Positions 38,863-48,378 of a stretch of DNA of 49,618 nucleotides are shown here, piece after piece. Source of the DNA: Chthoniobacterales bacterium (lineage in GTDB: Bacteria > Verrucomicrobiota > Verrucomicrobiia > Chthoniobacterales > JAATET01); contig DATCRI010000057.1 in NCBI GenBank assembly GCA_036569045.1, positions 1 to 49,618 of the forward strand, written 5' to 3'. Each line of letters begins with the position of its first letter. The first letter of the stretch is position 1. A program made the position numbers and the translations under genes. Under the pieces are notes generated by a model. It did no database searches and was not told the origin of the DNA. It saw nothing but the letters and a program-made list of their open reading frames with translations.

Positions 38863-38871
38863 TGTGCATAA
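38863..38871 (-). promoter_or_regulatory. DnaA box overlapping the dnaA start codon
   Basis: Plus-strand TGTGCATAA is the reverse complement of TTATGCACA, a perfect consensus match. It covers the GTG start codon at 38864-38866 and the next codon. DnaA bound here could block its own expression as a direct autoregulation; this is inference. Confidence 0.65.
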
Positions 38872-40243
38872 GTTACTTGCGACGCAGGATTTCGCGACCA
38901 TTTGGGGCACCATTTCCGCCCTTATCGCCCCCCGGGTCAGCGCTGATGGATTTCAGCGTTGGTTCCGCGATATCGAGGTCTGTGGAGACGACGGAACGAC
39001 GCTCACGCTTTCGGTCCCGAACCCCATTCACAAGTTCTTCCTCGAGAGCAATTATCTGCCCCTCGTGCAGGGCGCGGTCGCCGAGGCCTTCGACTCGGCC
39101 CGCGAGATCGTGATCGTGGCCCGGCAGGCGGACGATATGGAGGCCGGCCCGACGCTGAACGTGATCGAGGAGCCCGAGCCCGTGCGCCCGGCTCCACGCG
39201 AGAAAGGCGCCACGGCCTTCACCAGCGGGATGAACCCCCGCAACAATTTCGACGCATTCGTCGTCGGCTCGAACAATCAGTTCGCCTACGCCGCGGCCCT
39301 CGCCGTCGCGCAGGCGCCAGCCAAGACCTACAACCCGTTTTTCATCTACGGCGGCAGCGGACTCGGCAAAACGCACCTGCTGCAGGCCATCGGCCACCAC
39401 GTGCTCGCCTCCCGCAAGGGTGCGAAGGTTTTCTACGTCTCCAGCGAGCAGTTCACCAACGAGTTCATCGACGCCATTCAGCACGGCACTCTCGTCAAAT
39501 TCCGGAAGAAATACCGGCAGGCGGACGTGCTGATGATCGACGACATCCAGTTCCTCGCCGGCAAGGAGCGCTCGCAGGAGGAATTCTTCCATACCTTCAA
39601 TACCCTGCACGACGGTCACAAGCAGATCATCCTGTCCAGCGACCGCCCTGCGAGTGAGATCGAGAAGCTCGAGCAGCGCCTCGTCTCCCGCTTCGAGTGG
39701 GGGATGACGGCGGAGTTGCAGCCGCCGGACATGGAAACGCGTATCGCGATTCTCCAGAGCAAGGCCGAGAACCTCAAGATTCACCTCGAACAGTGGGTGA
39801 TCGAGTTCCTTGCCGACAAGATTCGCAACAACGTCCGCCGCCTCGAGGGCGCGCTCATGCGCGTGGCTTCCTATGGATCGCTCAGCGGTCGCAAGCTCAC
39901 CCGCGAGGACATCGAGACGCTGCTGCGCGACATCTTCCAGGAGCAGGCCCGTCGCGCCGTCACGATCGACCAGATCCAGCGCAAGGTTGCGGAGACGTTC
40001 GATCTGCGCATCGCGGACATGACGAGCAAGCGCCGCCTGGCGAGCATCGCCTACCCGCGCCAGATCGCGATGTATCTGTCCCGCGAGCTGACGAATTCCA
40101 CCCTCACGGAGATCGGTGATCTTTTCGGCGGCAAGGACCACGGCACCGTGATCCATGCGGTGAAGCTCATCAAGCGCCGCATGGAGGAAGACGAGCGCAC
40201 GCGCCACATGATCCAGTCCATCGAAACGCAGCTGCAGAGATAG
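38864..40243 (+). CDS. dnaA: Chromosomal replication initiator DnaA
   Basis: DnaA binds DnaA boxes and melts oriC as an ATP-bound filament. The 459-residue protein has domain I at about residues 1-90, then a short linker to about 125. Domain III starts near FDAFVVGSNNQFAYAAA, with Walker A GGSGLGKT at 163-170 and Walker B DVLMIDDIQFLAGKERSQEE. The DNA-binding domain IV has the signature GGKDHGTVIHAVKLIKRR. The start is GTG 38864, preceded by AAGGAG. dnaN follows after 87 bases on the same strand, the standard order. Confidence 0.98.
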   Translation: MHKLLATQDFATIWGTISALIAPRVSADGFQRWFRDIEVCGDDGTTLTLSVPNPIHKFFLESNYLPLVQGAVAEAFDSAREIVIVARQADDMEAGPTLNVIEEPEPVRPAPREKGATAFTSGMNPRNNFDAFVVGSNNQFAYAAALAVAQAPAKTYNPFFIYGGSGLGKTHLLQAIGHHVLASRKGAKVFYVSSEQFTNEFIDAIQHGTLVKFRKKYRQADVLMIDDIQFLAGKERSQEEFFHTFNTLHDGHKQIILSSDRPASEIEKLEQRLVSRFEWGMTAELQPPDMETRIAILQSKAENLKIHLEQWVIEFLADKIRNNVRRLEGALMRVASYGSLSGRKLTREDIETLLRDIFQEQARRAVTIDQIQRKVAETFDLRIADMTSKRRLASIAYPRQIAMYLSRELTNSTLTEIGDLFGGKDHGTVIHAVKLIKRRMEEDERTRHMIQSIETQLQR

Positions 40244-40330
40244 CCGATGCCGCGAGTTTTTAGTTGAGAGGCCCGCGCCCCGCGGATACCACAGCAGCTA
40301 TCGCGGCCGAGTGCCGCAGCGCCCCATTCC

Positions 40331-41440
40331 ATGAAGTTCAGCGTCACCAAAGAAAACCTTCTCGAAGGCCTCCAGAAAACCCAGAACGTCGTTAGCAATC
40401 GCACCACGCTTCCCGTGTTGTCGAACGTGCTCGTCGAGACCACCGACACCGGCGTTCGCCTCAGCACGACCGACATGGAAGTCGCCCTGCGCGTCGACGT
40501 GCCGGCGGTCATCGAGAAGCCCGGCGCCACCACGCTGCCGGCCCGTCGTTTGTTGAGCGTCGTCCGGGAGCTTCCCTCGAGCGAGATCCAGATCGAGACC
40601 GACGCGAAGAGCATCTCCGCCATTCGCAGCGGCCAGAGCTTCTTCAAGATCTTCGGCCTCGCGCGTGAGGAATTTCCGGCGTTCCCGAGCTCGAAGGACG
40701 CCCGCAGCCTCTCGCTGAAGCAGAGCGTGCTCCGCGATGGCCTGCGCAAGACCAGCTACGCGATCTCGATGGACGAGACCCGTTACGTGCTGAATGGCAT
40801 CCTCTTCTCCTTCAAGGAAAACACGCTCAAGCTCGTCGCCACCGACGGCCGCCGTCTCGCGCTTTTCGAAGAGACGATCGATGCCGAACTCGCCGGCAAG
40901 CTCGACCTCGACTTCATCGTCCCGACCAAGGCGATCAACGAGCTCCAGCGCCTCCTCAACGATGACGGTGACCTCACGCTTTCCGTGAGCGACAATCTCG
41001 TCTCCTTCGAGCTCAACGGCTCGCTGCTCGTCTCGAAGCTCGTCGACGGCAACTACCCGAACTACAAGCAGGTCATTCCCTCGAGCGAGGACGTCAAGGA
41101 AGTCGTCGCCCTCGAGCGCGAAACGTTCCTCACGACCGTGCGCCGCGTGTCGCTGCTCAGCAACGACAAGACCAGCTCGATCCGCCTCAATTTTACGAAG
41201 AACAACATCGAGGTCACCTCGAACACGCCGGAAATCGGCGAAGCGAAGGAATCCATCGCCGTCGCCTATCGCGGCCGCGATTTCTCGATCGCGTTCAATC
41301 CCGAGTATCTCATGGACCCGCTCAAGGCCCTGCCGAACGACGAGGTGAATCTTCACCTCATCGACGAGATGAGCCCCGGCGTCCTGAAGATCAACTCCGG
41401 CTTCCTCTACGTGATCATGCCGATGCGCGTCTCCGCGTAA
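40331..41440 (+). CDS. dnaN: DNA polymerase III beta subunit (sliding clamp)
   Basis: DnaN is the ring-shaped sliding clamp that tethers DNA polymerase III. The 369-residue protein starts MKFSVTKENLLEGLQKTQNV with NRTTLPVLSNVLVET, has three similar beta-alpha domains (DGRRLALFEETI in the second), and ends in GFLYVIMPMRVSA, where MPMR is the conserved C-terminal motif. Length is normal. A GC-rich hairpin lies 37 bases after the stop. Confidence 0.97.
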   Translation: MKFSVTKENLLEGLQKTQNVVSNRTTLPVLSNVLVETTDTGVRLSTTDMEVALRVDVPAVIEKPGATTLPARRLLSVVRELPSSEIQIETDAKSISAIRSGQSFFKIFGLAREEFPAFPSSKDARSLSLKQSVLRDGLRKTSYAISMDETRYVLNGILFSFKENTLKLVATDGRRLALFEETIDAELAGKLDLDFIVPTKAINELQRLLNDDGDLTLSVSDNLVSFELNGSLLVSKLVDGNYPNYKQVIPSSEDVKEVVALERETFLTTVRRVSLLSNDKTSSIRLNFTKNNIEVTSNTPEIGEAKESIAVAYRGRDFSIAFNPEYLMDPLKALPNDEVNLHLIDEMSPGVLKINSGFLYVIMPMRVSA

Positions 41441-43268: not shown

Positions 43269-43340
43269 GCCGGCATAGCACAGTGGTAGTGCAACGGTTT
43301 TGTAAACCGTAGGTCATCGGTTCGAATCCGATTGCCGGCT
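43269..43340 (+). tRNA. tRNA-Thr (anticodon UGU)
   Basis: The 72-base cloverleaf is complete: acceptor GCCGGCA pairs with TGCCGGC, the D stem is GCAC/GTGC, the anticodon stem ACGGT/ACCGT encloses TTTGTAA (anticodon TGT), and the T arm has ATCGG-TTCGAAT-CCGAT. The discriminator base is T43340 and CCA is not encoded. UGU reads ACA (and by wobble other Thr codons). It stands alone, next to the type VII-like operon, whose candidate promoter begins 95 bases later. Confidence 0.95.
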
Positions 43341-43505: not shown

Positions 43506-43778
43506 ATGGCACAGGCAATCATGGACCCGGAGGAAGTCCGCCGGTTTGCGACGGAGCTCAAGCGGTTCAATCAGGATGTCCAGGTGCGGGCGGCGTCGCT
43601 GCAGGCCCGATTTTCCGCCCTGGGAAGCAGTTGGCAGGATCAGGAGCACGAGAAGTTCGCGGAGGAGTTCGTCGCCACGATGAAGGCGCTCAAGAAATTC
43701 ATCGAGGTCTCGGACCAGCATGCGCCCTACCTGTTGCGAAAGGCGCAGCGGATCGAGCAGTATCTGGATCAACGCTGA
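43506..43778 (+). CDS. WXG100-like (ESAT-6 type) protein
   Basis: This 90-residue protein has the size and helix-turn-helix form of WXG100 proteins, the secreted or structural partners of type VII systems. Helix 1 is about residues 7-38, helix 2 about 47-88. The turn carries Trp43-Gln-Asp45 in place of W-x-G, and Phe51 lies eight positions after the Trp, as in W-x-G-x-A-x3-F. Asp replaces Gly at the third position. ATG 43506 is preceded by AAGGA eight bases upstream; the frame is open upstream but the leader looks random. It begins the four-gene operon. No signal peptide is visible. Confidence 0.8.
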   Translation: MAQAIMDPEEVRRFATELKRFNQDVQVRAASLQARFSALGSSWQDQEHEKFAEEFVATMKALKKFIEVSDQHAPYLLRKAQRIEQYLDQR

Positions 43779-43782
43779 CGGC

Positions 43783-44310
43783 ATGGCCATTCCCGCCCAG
43801 GCACACGTTACCTCGATCGATGCCCTCGGAACGTTCCGGGCAAATCTGGTGGTTTTTCGCGCCACGACCTCGCAGGCGCTCGACGAGTTGTTCGACGAAG
43901 TCCGTCGCACGCGGCAATGGATCCTCAACGACCGGCGCTTTCATTGGGAGGGCGAGGTGCGCCGGCGGCAGAAGAAGCTCGATCAGGCGCTGCAGGAGCT
44001 CATGGGCGCCCGGCTTTCCGATCTCCGGGCATCGACCGCCGCGCAGCAGAATGCCGTGACGAAGGCGCGGGCCGCGTTGCGCGAGGCGGAGGAGAAACTG
44101 CGGCGCGTGAAATACTGGGCGCGCAATTACGACCTCACGGCCGAACCTTTGGCCAAGCGACTCGGCGGGCTGCGCAGCTTTTTGGAACAGGATTTGCCGC
44201 GGGGAATTGCCGATCTGGCGGCCCGGCAGCGGGCGCTCGACGAATATGCCGGACGGCGCGCGGCGGCCAATCCAGAGCCCGCGAGCGAACCGCAGGAACC
44301 GACGACATGA
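43783..44310 (+). CDS. Coiled-coil protein in the type VII-like operon
   Basis: This 175-residue protein starts 4 bases after the WXG100-like stop. It is almost all helical: helices at about 10-50 and 56-125 (LRASTAAQQNAVTKARAALR, EAEEKLRRVKYW), then 130-160, and a Pro/Glu-rich tail. A literal Trp-Glu-Gly sits at residues 55-57 between two helices (FHWEGEVRRRQ), a WXG turn in a longer protein. This resembles long helical-hairpin substrates or chaperone-like partners (LXG or PPE-like in role, not sequence). No signal peptide or membrane segment. I do not recognise a named family. It overlaps the next gene by 4 bases. Confidence 0.72.
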   Translation: MAIPAQAHVTSIDALGTFRANLVVFRATTSQALDELFDEVRRTRQWILNDRRFHWEGEVRRRQKKLDQALQELMGARLSDLRASTAAQQNAVTKARAALREAEEKLRRVKYWARNYDLTAEPLAKRLGGLRSFLEQDLPRGIADLAARQRALDEYAGRRAAANPEPASEPQEPTT

Positions 44311-44519
44311 TTTTCAAGGGATGTGCCTCCACGCTGGCCCAGGCGGGCCGGAATCTTTCCTCCGAGTGGGAGGAAGCGCAGGCGCACTGGCGCGATGCGA
44401 AGGCCGCGGAATTTCAGCGGGAATATCTCGATCCCCTGCCGCCGCAGCTGGCGCGGGCCGTGGAGACGCTCGAGGAACTGGATCGACTGCTCGGAAAGGT
44501 GAGGCGGGAGTGTGAGTGA
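44307..44519 (+). CDS. Short WXG-like protein (70 aa)
   Basis: This 70-residue protein starts at ATG 44307 (ATGA overlap) and ends inside the ATPase gene start, so all four genes are tightly coupled. It repeats the first gene's signature: Trp28-Arg-Asp30 and Phe36 (W-x-D-x5-F, EAQAHWRDAKAAEFQRE), on a single helical hairpin with a shortened first helix. The C-terminal helix (VETLEELDRLLGKVRR) is amphipathic. It could be a second WXG-type partner forming a heterodimer with the 90-residue protein, as EsxA-EsxB do. That is inference from size and motif. Confidence 0.65.
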   Translation: MIFKGCASTLAQAGRNLSSEWEEAQAHWRDAKAAEFQREYLDPLPPQLARAVETLEELDRLLGKVRRECE

Positions 44520-47500
44520 CGTGCGCGAATTGGAAGTCGGCCGGGGCATGGAACGGCTCGAGCATTTGCGGGCGACCCTCGCGGCCTTTGCCAGCGAAGA
44601 GGCGGAACTCGGGCGTCGCCTGCGGGACCGACGTTATCGGCTGCAGCGAGCCTGCGACGATCGACTTGCGGAGGTGGACCGCCGGCTCGCGGACGCGCTC
44701 TCCGAGCGGGGCGCCGCTCTTTCCGAAAGCAAGCGGCGGCTCACCGAGCGGCATGACGCTCGCCGGCTGCGCATCCGCCGACTGCAGAGCGAGGGGCTGA
44801 GGAATCTGCCCAGGCTCGCCCGGCTCGAGCGCGAGCGCTGGCTGGGAGATCTGCAGATGCAGGAATTTCTGGTGACGCGGAAGCTCACCGCGGACCGCGA
44901 GGCTGCGGACAAGGCGTTTGAAAAAGTTTCCGCGGAGCTGGCGGCAATCGGATCCGACCTGCGGAATCTCGAGAGACGGGCGCGCGAGTATTTCACCGGC
45001 TACCTGAGCTTCCGCTGGCTGTTGCGGCGCGAGGGGGCCGTCGAAGCGGGGTCCCGGGAAAAGCTGGCGACCGTTCTGGCGCAGACGACGGAACGACTGC
45101 GCGAGTTCCGAAAGCTGCCGCTGCCGAAGGTCTTCAGCTTTCTGCCGCTGCCGGCGTTGCTCGTGTTGCTCGCGGTGGCGACCTTCCTCGTCGCGAGTTC
45201 CTTCCCGGGTATCTTCACTGGCGTGGTGCTGGCCGGAGCGCTGGTGATGATCGCGCTGATCGCGGTGCATTTCGTGAGTCGACGGCAGGCCAAGCCGCTG
45301 GCGGAAGCCGTGGCGGCGGGAATCGCCGAGGCGCGCGGGTTGCATTCCGCCTGGCGGGCGGCAGCGCTCGCGGAGCACGAGCGGGCGTGTGAACGGATCA
45401 AGGGCGAGCTCGCGCGGACGAGCACGCAGATCGAGGGGCAGTGGACGCGGGGAGACGAGATCAAGATCGATTTCGAGGCCCGTGTGCGGTCCAAACTCGA
45501 AGCGCGGGTGCCGCGCGCGCTCGCGGCGAATGACAAGGCCCTGAAGGACCGGTTGGCGCGCCTCGGCGAGACGGAGGAGACCGGCGAGGTGCGGGCTGAT
45601 TTCGAGCGCCAACGGGCGGCGATTACCGCGGAGTGCGCGACGGGGAATGCCGGGGTCGACGCCGATGAGGTCCAGCGTTGGAGCGAACTCGAGGCGCGCT
45701 GGCAACGGGAGATCGAGCGGATTTATGCGGAGGTGGCCGGATTGAATGCGCTCGCCGCGGCGGCTTTCCCGGAATGGAGCCAGGCGCTCGTGGAGGCGTG
45801 GATGCCGCCGACGGAGTTCACGCCGGCGACGAAATTCGGGCGGCTCGACGTGGAGATTCCCGCGCCGATCGGCACCGACAGATCGCGGTTGCGGCTGCCC
45901 GGGCCGGCGCGTCTTTCGATTCCGCTCGCGCTCACGTATCCGCAGCACGGCTCGTTGCTTTTCGAGTCGAGTGCTTCCGGTGGAGCGGCGGTGATCGACT
46001 GCCTGAACCACATCATCCTGCGGCTGCTGGCGACCACGCCGCCGGGCAAGCTGAGTTTCACGATCGTCGATCCGGTCGGACTTGGGCAGAACTTTGCGGG
46101 GTTGATGCATCTCGGCGATTACGAGGAGAGCCTGATCAGCCGGCGGATCTGGACGCAGGCGGACCAGATCGAGGAGCGGCTGGCGGATCTCAGCCAGCAC
46201 ATCGAGAAGGTCATCCAGATGTATCTGCGCAACGAGTATCCGACGATCGTCGAATACAACGCGCAGGCGGGGAGCACGGCAGAGAAGTTTCACTTCCTGG
46301 TGATCGCGGATTTCCCCGCGAATTTCAGCGAGGTCGCGCTGAAGCGGCTGCAGAGCATCCTGGCGAGCGGTCCGCGCTGCGGGGTCTACACGCTCATTCA
46401 CTGGGATCGGCGGCAACCGGTGCCATCGGGCTTCGTGGCGGAGGAGTTGCGCAAGAGCAGCATTTGCATCCAGACTGACACCGACGGCGTGAGCCTGGAG
46501 AGCGAGTCCTCGGCGCTCGAAGCCCAGCTCGTGCTCGATACCGCGCCGGATGCCGCGCTGGCGCTGGAGCTCACGCATCGGATCGGCGCGCGCAGCGTGG
46601 ATGCGGGCCAGGTGCAGGTGCCGTTTCGCGCGATTGCGCCGACCGAGGAGGAGCTGTGGGCCGCCGACACGACGAACGAGCTGCGCGTGGCGATCGGTCG
46701 AACGGGCGCGACGAAGCGGCAGATGCTGGCGATCGGCAAGGGCACGCGGCAGCACGCGCTGATTGCGGGCAAGACGGGCTCCGGCAAGTCGACGCTGTTT
46801 CACGTGATCATCACGAATCTCGCGCTCGCGTGCAGTCCGGAGCAGGTGGAGTTCTACCTCATCGATTTCAAGAAGGGCGTGGAGTTCAAATGCTACGCGA
46901 CGAAGCGGCTGCCGCACGCGCGCGTGGTGGCGATCGAGAGCGATCGCGAGTTCGGGCTCAGCGTGCTCCAGCGCGTGGACGACGAGCTGCGTCGGCGCGG
47001 CGATGTCTTCCGCAAGCTCGGCGTGCAGGATCTCGCCGGCTACCAGCGGGCCAGTGGCGGGAAGCCGATGCCGCGGTCGCTCCTGATGATCGATGAGTTC
47101 CAGGAATTCTTCGTCGAGGACGACGCCATTGCGCAGAGCGCGTCGGTGTTGCTCGATCGGATCGTGCGGCAGGGGCGCGCCTTTGGCATCCACGTGCTGC
47201 TTGGCTCGCAGACGCTGGGCGGGGCGTATTCCCTCGCCCGCGCGACGCTCGGGCAGATGGTCATTCGCATCGCCCTGCAGTGCAACGAGGCGGACGCGTA
47301 TCTCATCATGGACGACGGCAATGCCGCACCGCGGCTGCTTTCGCGGCCGGGTGAGGGCATTTACAACGACGCCGCCGGCGCGGTGGAGGGCAATAGCCCG
47401 TTCCAGGTCGTGTGGCTGCCGGAGGAGGAGCGCGACGCGTGCCTGGACAAGGTGCGTCAGCTCGCGGAGCAGAGGCCGGGCATGGACGCGGCGCCGGTGG

Positions 47501-48378
47501 TCTTCGAGGGCAATGCGCCCGCCGATGTCGCGGAGAATCCGTTGCTCGCCAGGGTGCTGCGGACCCGGCCGAAGTCCGCGCCGGTCGCGGCGCGGGCCTG
47601 GCTCGGCGCGCCGAATTCCATCAAGGGACCGACGGAGGTCGTCTTTCAGCGGCAGGGCGGCAACAACCTGCTGATCGTCGGCCAGCGGGACGAGGCGGCC
47701 TTGACGATGCTCGGCAACGCGTTGCTCGCGCTCGGCGCGCAGTTTCCAGCGGATGCGGCGCGCTTCGTTTTTCTGCACAATGCCGCTCCGGGCTCGGCCG
47801 ACGCAGAGTTTCTCGACCGGGTGGTGGCGGCCGTGCCGCAGGAGGTCACGGTGGCGACTGGAGCGGGTGTCGCGGAGGTGCTGTCTGATCTCGCGGGGGA
47901 GTTGAAGCGACGCGAGGAGGGGGGCGGCGCGCCGGTGTTCGTCTTCGTGCATGGATTGCAACGATTCCGGAAATTGCGCGCCGACGAGGAGTTCGACTTT
48001 TCCTTTGCCGAAGCCGAGGCCGAGCCGAAGCCGGCGGCGCGGTTTGCGGAACTGGTTGCCGAAGGCAGCGGGCACGGGATGCACCTGCTCGTGTCGATGG
48101 ACACCTTCAATAGCGTGAATCGCTTCCTGAGCCGGAAGGCGCTGGCGGAGTTTGAAATGCGCGTGGTTTTCCAGATGAGCGCGAACGACTCGGCCAGCCT
48201 GATCGATTCCCCGAAGGCCAGTGGGCTGGGCCTGCACCGCGCGCTGCTTCACAACGAGCACGAGGGCACGTTGGAAACCTTCCGACCCTACGCGATGCCC
48301 GACGCCGCCTGGCTGGCGAAGGCTCCGGGCCGGCGGACGCGGGGCGTCACGCTCGATGCCGTGCAGCCGCCGGCGTGA
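44512..48378 (+). CDS. FtsK/EssC-like membrane ATPase with three ATPase modules
   Basis: This 1288-residue protein starts at GTG 44512. Residues 1-200 are coiled coil. Two transmembrane helices follow at about 208-228 and 233-253, then more coiled coil to about 410. Module 1 (about 450-700) keeps an FtsK-like frame (LSFTIVDPVGLGQNF) but its P-loop position lacks GKS/T. Module 2 (about 720-960) is the active one: Walker A GKTGSGKST at 753-761, Walker B LLMIDEF with Asp861-Glu862, and a sensor-like LLGSQTL at 896-902. Module 3 (about 1030-1280) has the fold but no GKT (LLIVGQRDEAAL). EssC/EccC ATPases export WXG100 proteins with a similar multi-module plan. The gene ends the operon. Confidence 0.85.
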   Translation: MSDVRELEVGRGMERLEHLRATLAAFASEEAELGRRLRDRRYRLQRACDDRLAEVDRRLADALSERGAALSESKRRLTERHDARRLRIRRLQSEGLRNLPRLARLERERWLGDLQMQEFLVTRKLTADREAADKAFEKVSAELAAIGSDLRNLERRAREYFTGYLSFRWLLRREGAVEAGSREKLATVLAQTTERLREFRKLPLPKVFSFLPLPALLVLLAVATFLVASSFPGIFTGVVLAGALVMIALIAVHFVSRRQAKPLAEAVAAGIAEARGLHSAWRAAALAEHERACERIKGELARTSTQIEGQWTRGDEIKIDFEARVRSKLEARVPRALAANDKALKDRLARLGETEETGEVRADFERQRAAITAECATGNAGVDADEVQRWSELEARWQREIERIYAEVAGLNALAAAAFPEWSQALVEAWMPPTEFTPATKFGRLDVEIPAPIGTDRSRLRLPGPARLSIPLALTYPQHGSLLFESSASGGAAVIDCLNHIILRLLATTPPGKLSFTIVDPVGLGQNFAGLMHLGDYEESLISRRIWTQADQIEERLADLSQHIEKVIQMYLRNEYPTIVEYNAQAGSTAEKFHFLVIADFPANFSEVALKRLQSILASGPRCGVYTLIHWDRRQPVPSGFVAEELRKSSICIQTDTDGVSLESESSALEAQLVLDTAPDAALALELTHRIGARSVDAGQVQVPFRAIAPTEEELWAADTTNELRVAIGRTGATKRQMLAIGKGTRQHALIAGKTGSGKSTLFHVIITNLALACSPEQVEFYLIDFKKGVEFKCYATKRLPHARVVAIESDREFGLSVLQRVDDELRRRGDVFRKLGVQDLAGYQRASGGKPMPRSLLMIDEFQEFFVEDDAIAQSASVLLDRIVRQGRAFGIHVLLGSQTLGGAYSLARATLGQMVIRIALQCNEADAYLIMDDGNAAPRLLSRPGEGIYNDAAGAVEGNSPFQVVWLPEEERDACLDKVRQLAEQRPGMDAAPVVFEGNAPADVAENPLLARVLRTRPKSAPVAARAWLGAPNSIKGPTEVVFQRQGGNNLLIVGQRDEAALTMLGNALLALGAQFPADAARFVFLHNAAPGSADAEFLDRVVAAVPQEVTVATGAGVAEVLSDLAGELKRREEGGGAPVFVFVHGLQRFRKLRADEEFDFSFAEAEAEPKPAARFAELVAEGSGHGMHLLVSMDTFNSVNRFLSRKALAEFEMRVVFQMSANDSASLIDSPKASGLGLHRALLHNEHEGTLETFRPYAMPDAAWLAKAPGRRTRGVTLDAVQPPA

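What the first reader, a model, noticed from the sequence alone, without database searches (positions are those of the whole stretch)
43506..48378. Minimal type VII-like secretion operon in a diderm bacterium
Four overlapping genes encode a WXG100-like 90-residue protein, a 175-residue helical protein, a 70-residue WXG-like protein and a 1288-residue FtsK/EssC-like membrane ATPase. Type VII systems are known from Actinobacteria and Firmicutes, with EccB/EccD/EccE or EssA/EssB partners; none is visible here. The genome also has lipid A genes, so export would have to handle an outer membrane. This could be a distinct branch of type VII systems, or an unrelated use of WXG proteins with a translocase.
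Basis: partly seen in the sequence, partly recalled or inferred. Interest (0 to 1): 0.85.

Follow-up and report, generated by a model that had tools for sequence, protein, structure and literature searches.

The report
Stand-alone WXG100/EssC-like cassette in Verrucomicrobiota
A four-gene block in a bacterium with an outer membrane encodes a membrane motor distantly related to the type VII secretion motor of Gram-positive bacteria, plus three small helical partner proteins; the same block recurs, always on its own, across Verrucomicrobiota and Planctomycetota, so it can be tested whether such bacteria run a minimal type VII-like exporter.

Summary
At 43506-48378 four tightly packed genes encode a WXG100 protein (A, 90 aa), a 175-aa protein (B), a 70-aa WXG-like protein (C) and a 1288-aa FtsK-superfamily membrane ATPase (D). 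The A-B-C-D cassette recurs in fixed order and orientation in Verrucomicrobiota, Planctomycetota and Lentisphaerota (64 loci with all four intact). It has no conserved neighbours. It is present in 20 of 338 sampled genomes of the phylum.

D has three FtsK-like domains; only the middle one keeps its catalytic motifs. It forms a clade with plasmid-borne 'mobile' WXG100/FtsK systems, separate from EccC/EssC and from FtsK. B is predicted as one long helical hairpin. It matches the N-terminal domain of the protein in the same slot of a Rhodococcus plasmid; in a Helicobacter plasmid that slot holds a nuclease toxin followed by an immunity gene. Here B carries no toxin, and 25 cassette-bearing genomes encode exactly one B each. 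EccB, EssB, YukD and LXG are absent from the genome.

Most likely it is a minimal, secretion-like translocase moving an A-B-C complex; secretion itself is inferred. The class was noted before (PMC3482391, PMC11090510, PMC10765036). What is new is the PVC-specific, toxin-free, membrane-anchored four-gene variant.

The parts
43506..43778 (+). Gene A: 90-aa WXG100 family protein (WQD turn instead of WXG), the most conserved of the small proteins (mean pairwise identity 69% over 64 loci)
   Evidence: PF06013 E 2.5e-10, above cut-off; only WXG100 locus in the genome over the cut-off; 74-89% identity to 7 relatives; WxD in 70 of 70 members, no [YF]xxx[DE] in the last 30 residues of any; 69%
43783..44310 (+). 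Gene B: 175-aa helical-hairpin protein (helices 5-78 and 82-162) with a Pro/Ala-rich C-terminal tail; occupies the effector slot of related plasmid systems but has no toxin domain
   Evidence: No family; AlphaFold2 mean pLDDT 92.4; no PDB match better than E 0.018; profile match to residues 19-157 of the Rhodococcus plasmid slot protein, E 5.8e-6, probability 85%; exactly one copy in each of 25 cassette-bearing genomes
44307..44519 (+). Gene C: 70-aa WXG-like protein with conserved W21, W28-x-D30, F36 and a near-invariant C-terminal Cys-Glu
   Evidence: PF06013 sub-threshold E 0.027, TIGR03930 E 0.0048; profile comparison A vs C E 1.2e-4, probability 55%; WxD in 74 of 74 members
44512..48378 (+). 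Gene D: 1288-aa ATPase. Coiled coil (about 1-203), hydrophobic membrane segment(s) (about 204-256), helical stalk (257-430), three FtsK-like domains (about 432-712, 713-985, 1020-1270); only the middle one has intact Walker A (GKTGSGKST) and Walker B (LLMIDEFQEF)
   Evidence: PF01580 E 4.3e-30; two or more hydrophobic peaks before residue 420 in 65 of 78 members, none in 3; AlphaFold2 mean pLDDT 79.4; structural matches to EccC, EssC and FtsK
43269..43340 (+). tRNA-Thr(TGT) 166 bp upstream of gene A; probably a coincidental neighbour
   Evidence: ARAGORN; a tRNA lies within 600 bp of only 3 of 70 cassettes

Best explanation
A self-contained, minimal translocase cassette of the EccC/EssC-like wing of the FtsK-HerA superfamily. 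Proposed working: (1) A and C (small WXG-type hairpins) pack along the long hairpin of B to make an elongated helical pre-secretion complex, analogous to LXG-Lap1-Lap2 or PE-PPE. (2) The complex docks on D, a hexameric ATPase anchored in the inner membrane by the hydrophobic segments that follow its N-terminal coiled coil. (3) ATP hydrolysis in D's single active (middle) domain drives the folded helical complex across the inner membrane. (4) B, and possibly A, is the exported product itself, acting in the periplasm or at the cell surface; no toxin is delivered and no dedicated outer-membrane part is encoded. Shown here by sequence or structure prediction: the gene set and its fixed order, a single active ATPase domain, likely membrane anchoring, the helical-hairpin shape of B, its kinship with the N-terminal domain of a slot protein in a related system, and the absence of canonical partners. 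Inferred: complex formation, hexamer, secretion, the identity of the substrate and its destination.
For: Fixed A-B-C-D order and strand; 64 loci with all four genes at expected length, in Verrucomicrobiota, Planctomycetota and Lentisphaerota. A is a true WXG100 protein. D's best curated models are EccCa, EccCb and EssC, not FtsK, and the genome has a separate FtsK with a far stronger PF01580 match. Profile match of D's active domain to EccC/EssC, best stretch at the D1 position, E 1.5e-29. Structure: model residues 612-1175 match EccC ATPases 2+3 (Z 25) and 294-609 match the EccC DUF/D0 domain (Z about 15). A (69%) and D's middle domain (77%) are far more conserved than the rest, as expected if the WXG protein and the active motor work together. 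The plasmid relatives keep WXG protein and ATPase around a slot that in Helicobacter holds a nuclease toxin with its immunity gene, and B matches the N-terminal domain of the Rhodococcus slot protein. LXG-Lap1-Lap2 complexes are established for T7SSb (PMC9600955).
Against: No secretion evidence exists for any such Gram-negative system (PMC10765036 says unconfirmed). There is no YxxxD/E export motif in A or C, no outer-membrane or periplasmic partner in or near the cassette, and the closely related CoCoNuT ATPases lack transmembrane segments (PMC11090510), so membrane secretion is not universal in this clade. Only one hydrophobic peak passes the threshold in the window's own D. The D tree cannot decide whether the clade is nearer to EccC/EssC or to FtsK (AU p 0.34 and 0.36). 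Foldseek finds only generic coiled coils for B.
Confidence: 0.5

Rival explanations
1. [quoted passage not shown]
For: The clade includes CoCoNuT/TerY-P-type neighbours: the Caballeronia plasmid locus lies among VWA, CARF, PP2C, kinase and AAA genes and the Rhodococcus locus is next to TerD genes. PADLOC models SspH (E 4.4e-27) and mad8 (E 5.5e-20) match the active domain. The ATPase fold fits FtsK as well as EccC (Z 26 against 25). Three members of the family lack membrane segments.
Against: No nuclease or sensor gene accompanies the PVC cassettes, whose flanks are not conserved. Most D proteins keep hydrophobic membrane segments. PADLOC hits cover only the shared ATPase domain.
Confidence: 0.27
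2. A toxin-delivery (polymorphic-toxin) type VII-like system, in which the cassette exports antibacterial effectors encoded elsewhere in the genome.
For: The Helicobacter plasmid relative has a WHH/colicin-type nuclease plus SUKH immunity gene in the B slot. One planctomycete B carries an extra C-terminal domain with a weak Imm33-like match.
Against: 72 of 73 B proteins found are 140-220 aa, with no room for a toxin domain. Exactly one B-type protein per genome in 25 cassette-bearing genomes, placed next to A wherever the position of A was also reported. No LXG proteins in the genome. No immunity-like gene between B and C, since they are adjacent.
Confidence: 0.12
3. A true type VII secretion system (T7SSa or T7SSb member) whose remaining parts are unlinked or too diverged to see.
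For: WXG100 plus FtsK/EssC-like ATPase are the parts common to all T7SS (PMC10765036); best NCBIfam matches are EccC and EssC.
Against: No EccB, YukC/EssB or YukD over cut-off in a genome estimated 98% complete. D scores 112 bits against a 509-bit EccCa cut-off. A clade of the PVC proteins with EccC/EssC D1 that leaves out the mobile relatives is rejected (AU p 0.005).
Confidence: 0.08

Closest known systems
Stand-alone/mobile WXG100 + three-domain FtsK/HerA ('YueA-like') systems of Proteobacteria, Planctomycetes, Verrucomicrobia, Cyanobacteria, Bacteroidetes (PMC3482391, Table 1 note 6)
   Same: WXG protein with a distinct YueA-like ATPase of three FtsK-like domains, only the middle one active; Verrucomicrobia are named; described as mobile versions of T7SS
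   Different: That note gives no gene set, no mechanism and no further components. Here a fixed four-gene cassette with B and C, a membrane-anchored coiled-coil N-terminus, and a family tree that largely follows phyla
[quoted passage not shown]
   Same: EssC-like ATPase with only the central domain active, long N-terminal coiled coil, two WXG100-type proteins of which one lacks the motif, and a coiled-coil protein
   Different: CoCoNuT versions lack transmembrane segments, the coiled-coil protein is fused to a nuclease, and the set is embedded between VWA genes in a defence operon; here stand-alone, membrane segments, no nuclease
Type VIIb secretion system (EssC, EsxA, LXG-Lap1-Lap2)
   Same: FtsK/SpoIIIE ATPase after transmembrane segments, WXG100 protein, long-hairpin protein with two small WXG-like partners
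   Different: No EssB, YukD or LXG in the genome; coiled coil instead of FHA domains; three ATPase domains instead of four; separate clade
Type VIIa secretion system (EccC, EsxA/B, PE-PPE)
   Same: WXG100 proteins; EccC-like domain folds including a DUF/D0-like match
   Different: No EccB; no YxxxD/E motif; active domain is the middle of three
FtsK/SpoIIIE DNA translocases
   Same: Motor-domain fold (Z about 26)
   Different: FtsK_gamma does not appear among the Pfam matches of D; WXG partners present; the genome has its own FtsK elsewhere; FtsK proteins form a separate clade

Membership tests
Mobile/stand-alone WXG100 + three-domain FtsK systems (PMC3482391, PMC11090510) | WXG100 protein encoded next to an FtsK/EssC-like ATPase | tested here: met
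Mobile/stand-alone WXG100 + three-domain FtsK systems (PMC3482391, PMC11090510) | Three FtsK/HerA domains, only the middle one with intact Walker A/B | tested here: met
   Only the middle domain carries GKTGSGKST and LLMIDEFQEF (alignment); three ATPase-like folds in the model
Mobile/stand-alone WXG100 + three-domain FtsK systems (PMC3482391, PMC11090510) | Active domain groups with plasmid-borne members rather than with EccC/EssC or FtsK | tested here: met
   98/94; 90/80, not starred
Mobile/stand-alone WXG100 + three-domain FtsK systems (PMC3482391, PMC11090510) | Mobility of the cassette | tested here: inconclusive
   No conserved flanks and patchy presence suggest movement, but the tree follows phyla
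Type VIIa secretion system | EccB and other Ecc membrane partners | tested here: not met
   EccB: best E 0.28, below cut-off; EccD and EccE not searched
Type VIIa secretion system | EccC equivalog | tested here: not met
   111.8 bits against a cut-off of 509
Type VIIa secretion system | C-terminal YxxxD/E export motif on a substrate of the WXG/PE type | tested here: not met
   0 of 70 A and 0 of 74 C proteins
Type VIIb secretion system | EssB/YukC and YukD | tested here: not met
   No YukC match; YukD best E 0.27, below cut-off
Type VIIb secretion system | EssC equivalog with FHA domains | tested here: not met
   86 bits against a cut-off of 778; no FHA match in Pfam
Type VIIb secretion system | ATP-dependent secretion of WXG100/LXG proteins | not testable with these tools
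   Needs secretion assays
FtsK DNA translocase | Active-domain phylogeny inside FtsK | tested here: not met
   FtsK proteins form their own fully supported clade; the order of the three clades is unresolved
FtsK DNA translocase | FtsK_gamma DNA-binding domain | tested here: not met
   Absent among Pfam matches of D up to E 10
WXG100 family (gene A) | Profile score above cut-off | tested here: met
   40.9 bits against 27.3; turn motif is WxD, not WxG
WXG100 family (gene C) | Profile score above cut-off | tested here: not met
   15.2 bits against 27.3; remote profile similarity to A only

The most novel reading that the evidence does not exclude
A PVC-superphylum secretion machine, distinct from T7SSa and T7SSb, that works in lipid-A-type diderm bacteria with only four proteins and exports a non-toxin helical complex (A-B-C) as its single product, for instance a structural or pore-forming envelope assembly.
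Probability: 0.25. Interest if true: 0.85.

Novelty: new variant of a known kind. Interest (0 to 1): 0.55.

Why it matters
Whether WXG100/FtsK gene pairs of Gram-negative bacteria secrete anything is an open question in the T7SS literature (PMC10765036). This cassette is the simplest form seen here: four genes, one product slot, no toxin and no defence operon around it. It occurs in named isolates with public genomes (Chthoniobacter flavus Ellin428, Verrucomicrobium sp. BvORR106), so a single set of deletion and secretome experiments could settle it. It also bears on how T7SS motors evolved, with and without membrane partners.

Tried and rejected
Papers on verrucomicrobial WXG100: the only relevant hit is PMC3482391. 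The 2012 TerY-P paper cited by PMC11090510 is not held.

Considered and rejected: prophage or phage origin (no phage record covers most of D); tRNA-targeted integration (3 of 70); hidden effectors sharing B's domain (one B per genome in 25 genomes).

Not done: PADLOC scan of flanking genes for defence islands; searches for EccD, EccE, EssA.
Full report
What is there. Genes A (43506-43778, 90 aa), B (43783-44310, 175 aa), C (44307-44519, 70 aa) and D (44512-48378, 1288 aa) lie on the + strand with spacings of +4, -4 and -8 bp, so they look like one transcription unit. They follow dnaA, dnaN, a DUF892 gene, an aldo/keto reductase gene on the other strand and a tRNA-Thr; a TPR-protein gene on the opposite strand follows. 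A passes Pfam's WXG100 cut-off (E 2.5e-10), C is a sub-threshold WXG100 match, B matches nothing, and D is FtsK_SpoIIIE, with EccCa, EccCb and EssC the best curated models.

It is a cassette, and it is common. Against 57 relatives D was found at full length in seven other genomes besides the window's own, at 52-65% identity, each time preceded by A, B and C. A scan of genome contigs returned 80 loci from Verrucomicrobiota, Planctomycetota, Lentisphaerota and a few oddly labelled bins. Among 86 loci examined, D was called in 85, C in 76, B in 73 and A in 70; in 64 loci all four have the expected length. Order and strand are the same throughout the listing, apart from a few cut-off loci and the odd locus L019. 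In an even sample of the phylum 20 of 338 genomes carry gene A. No flanking gene family recurs in more than 6 of 86 loci, and the top families are mostly shared by Roseibacillus-type close kin. The D tree follows phyla: Planctomycetota change once, Verrucomicrobiota at least twice. Old descent with much loss and relocation, plus some transfer within the phylum, fits; this is inference.

The motor. D has an N-terminal coiled coil, hydrophobic segments, a helical stalk and three FtsK-like domains. Walker A (GKTGSGKST) and Walker B occur only in the middle domain, whose mean pairwise identity is 77% against about 21% for coiled coil, membrane and stalk regions. A simple hydropathy count gives two or more peaks before residue 420 in 65 of 78 D proteins, one in ten (the window's among them) and none in three. 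The AlphaFold2 model of residues 89-1288 (pLDDT 79) matches EccC, EssC and FtsK structures; model residues 612-1175 align with EccC ATPases 2 and 3 (Z 25.1) and 294-609 with the EccC DUF/D0 domain (Z about 15). By profile the middle domain is nearest to the D1 position of EccC/EssC (E 1.5e-29) ahead of D2 (1.6e-19). Domain-by-domain correspondence is therefore not settled. Trees of the middle domain put the PVC proteins with ATPases from Rhodococcus, Caballeronia, Helicobacter and Deinococcus plasmids and one faecal phage contig (98/94, 90/80), apart from EccC/EssC and from FtsK; which of the two is the sister group is unresolved.

The small proteins. A and C have a W-x-D turn in every member (70 of 70, 74 of 74) and no YxxxD/E motif. 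A is the most conserved small protein (69% mean pairwise identity, against 37% for B and 40% for C). B is predicted with high confidence (pLDDT 92.4) as two helices of about 74 and 81 residues, too long for a WXG100 hairpin and in the size range reported for LXG and PPE N-terminal domains (PMC9600955 gives about 180-200 aa). In the Helicobacter plasmid locus the order is WXG100 protein, WHH/colicin-type nuclease with a helical N-terminus, SUKH immunity protein, small protein, ATPase. In Caballeronia it is WXG100, 436-aa protein, 113-aa protein, small protein, ATPase. The N-terminal part of the Rhodococcus slot protein matches the B profile (E 5.8e-6, probability 85%); the Helicobacter, Caballeronia and Deinococcus ones do not. 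So B sits in the slot of an effector, and for one relative it is homologous to the effector-like N-terminal domain. In Verrucomicrobiota it has no toxin domain, and 25 cassette genomes have just one B each.

What is missing. The genome has no EccB, YukC/EssB, YukD or LXG over cut-off. It has an outer membrane (LpxB; Omp85) and a separate FtsK.

Interpretation. The parts common to all type VII systems are a WXG100 protein and an EccC/EssC ATPase (PMC10765036); this cassette has relatives of both plus two small helical proteins that could form a composite substrate with A. I take a minimal secretion-like translocase as most likely (0.5), with an intracellular WXG-assisted ATPase second (0.27). 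Export, substrate and destination are untested. The class has been noted in print: PMC3482391 records solo WXG proteins with a three-domain, middle-active ATPase in verrucomicrobia and planctomycetes and calls them mobile T7SS versions; PMC11090510 describes the same ATPase type in CoCoNuT operons and cites an earlier remark that such operons occur as stand-alone systems; PMC10765036 says WXG100/FtsK pairs of Gram-negative species are unconfirmed as secretion systems. What this work adds is the exact four-gene content, its fixed architecture across three phyla, the hairpin nature and slot identity of B, the lack of toxins, and the likely membrane anchoring.

Noticed in passing
window 38864-41440: dnaA and dnaN lie about 2 kb upstream of the cassette, and GC skew turns from negative to positive near 42 kb, so the cassette probably sits close to the replication origin.
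   Followed up: partly
L019:15352-16320 (G017 contig 41): The same genome that carries a standard cassette (L017) has a second, different locus at a contig end: a diverged D-type ATPase fragment followed by two WXG-like proteins of 92 and 87 aa, in the gene order seen on the Deinococcus plasmid.
   Followed up: partly
L098:5957-6982: Planctomycete B protein of 341 aa with an extra C-terminal domain giving a weak Imm33-like match (E 9e-4, below cut-off).
   Followed up: partly
L102 (Caballeronia plasmid pSBC2-5): WXG100/FtsK genes embedded among VWA, CARF, PP2C, kinase and AAA genes, resembling the type III-A CoCoNuT arrangement.
   Followed up: partly
L103:3737-8139 (Helicobacter plasmid pNHP190012_1): WXG100-like protein, WHH/colicin-type nuclease, SUKH immunity protein and FtsK-like ATPase in one run of genes: a likely toxin-delivery version in a diderm bacterium.
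   Followed up: partly
L047, L057, L089 (Prosthecobacter-type bins): D proteins of 1205-1215 aa; two of them (L057, L089) show no membrane-like segment, so a soluble sub-branch may exist inside the PVC family.
   Followed up: no
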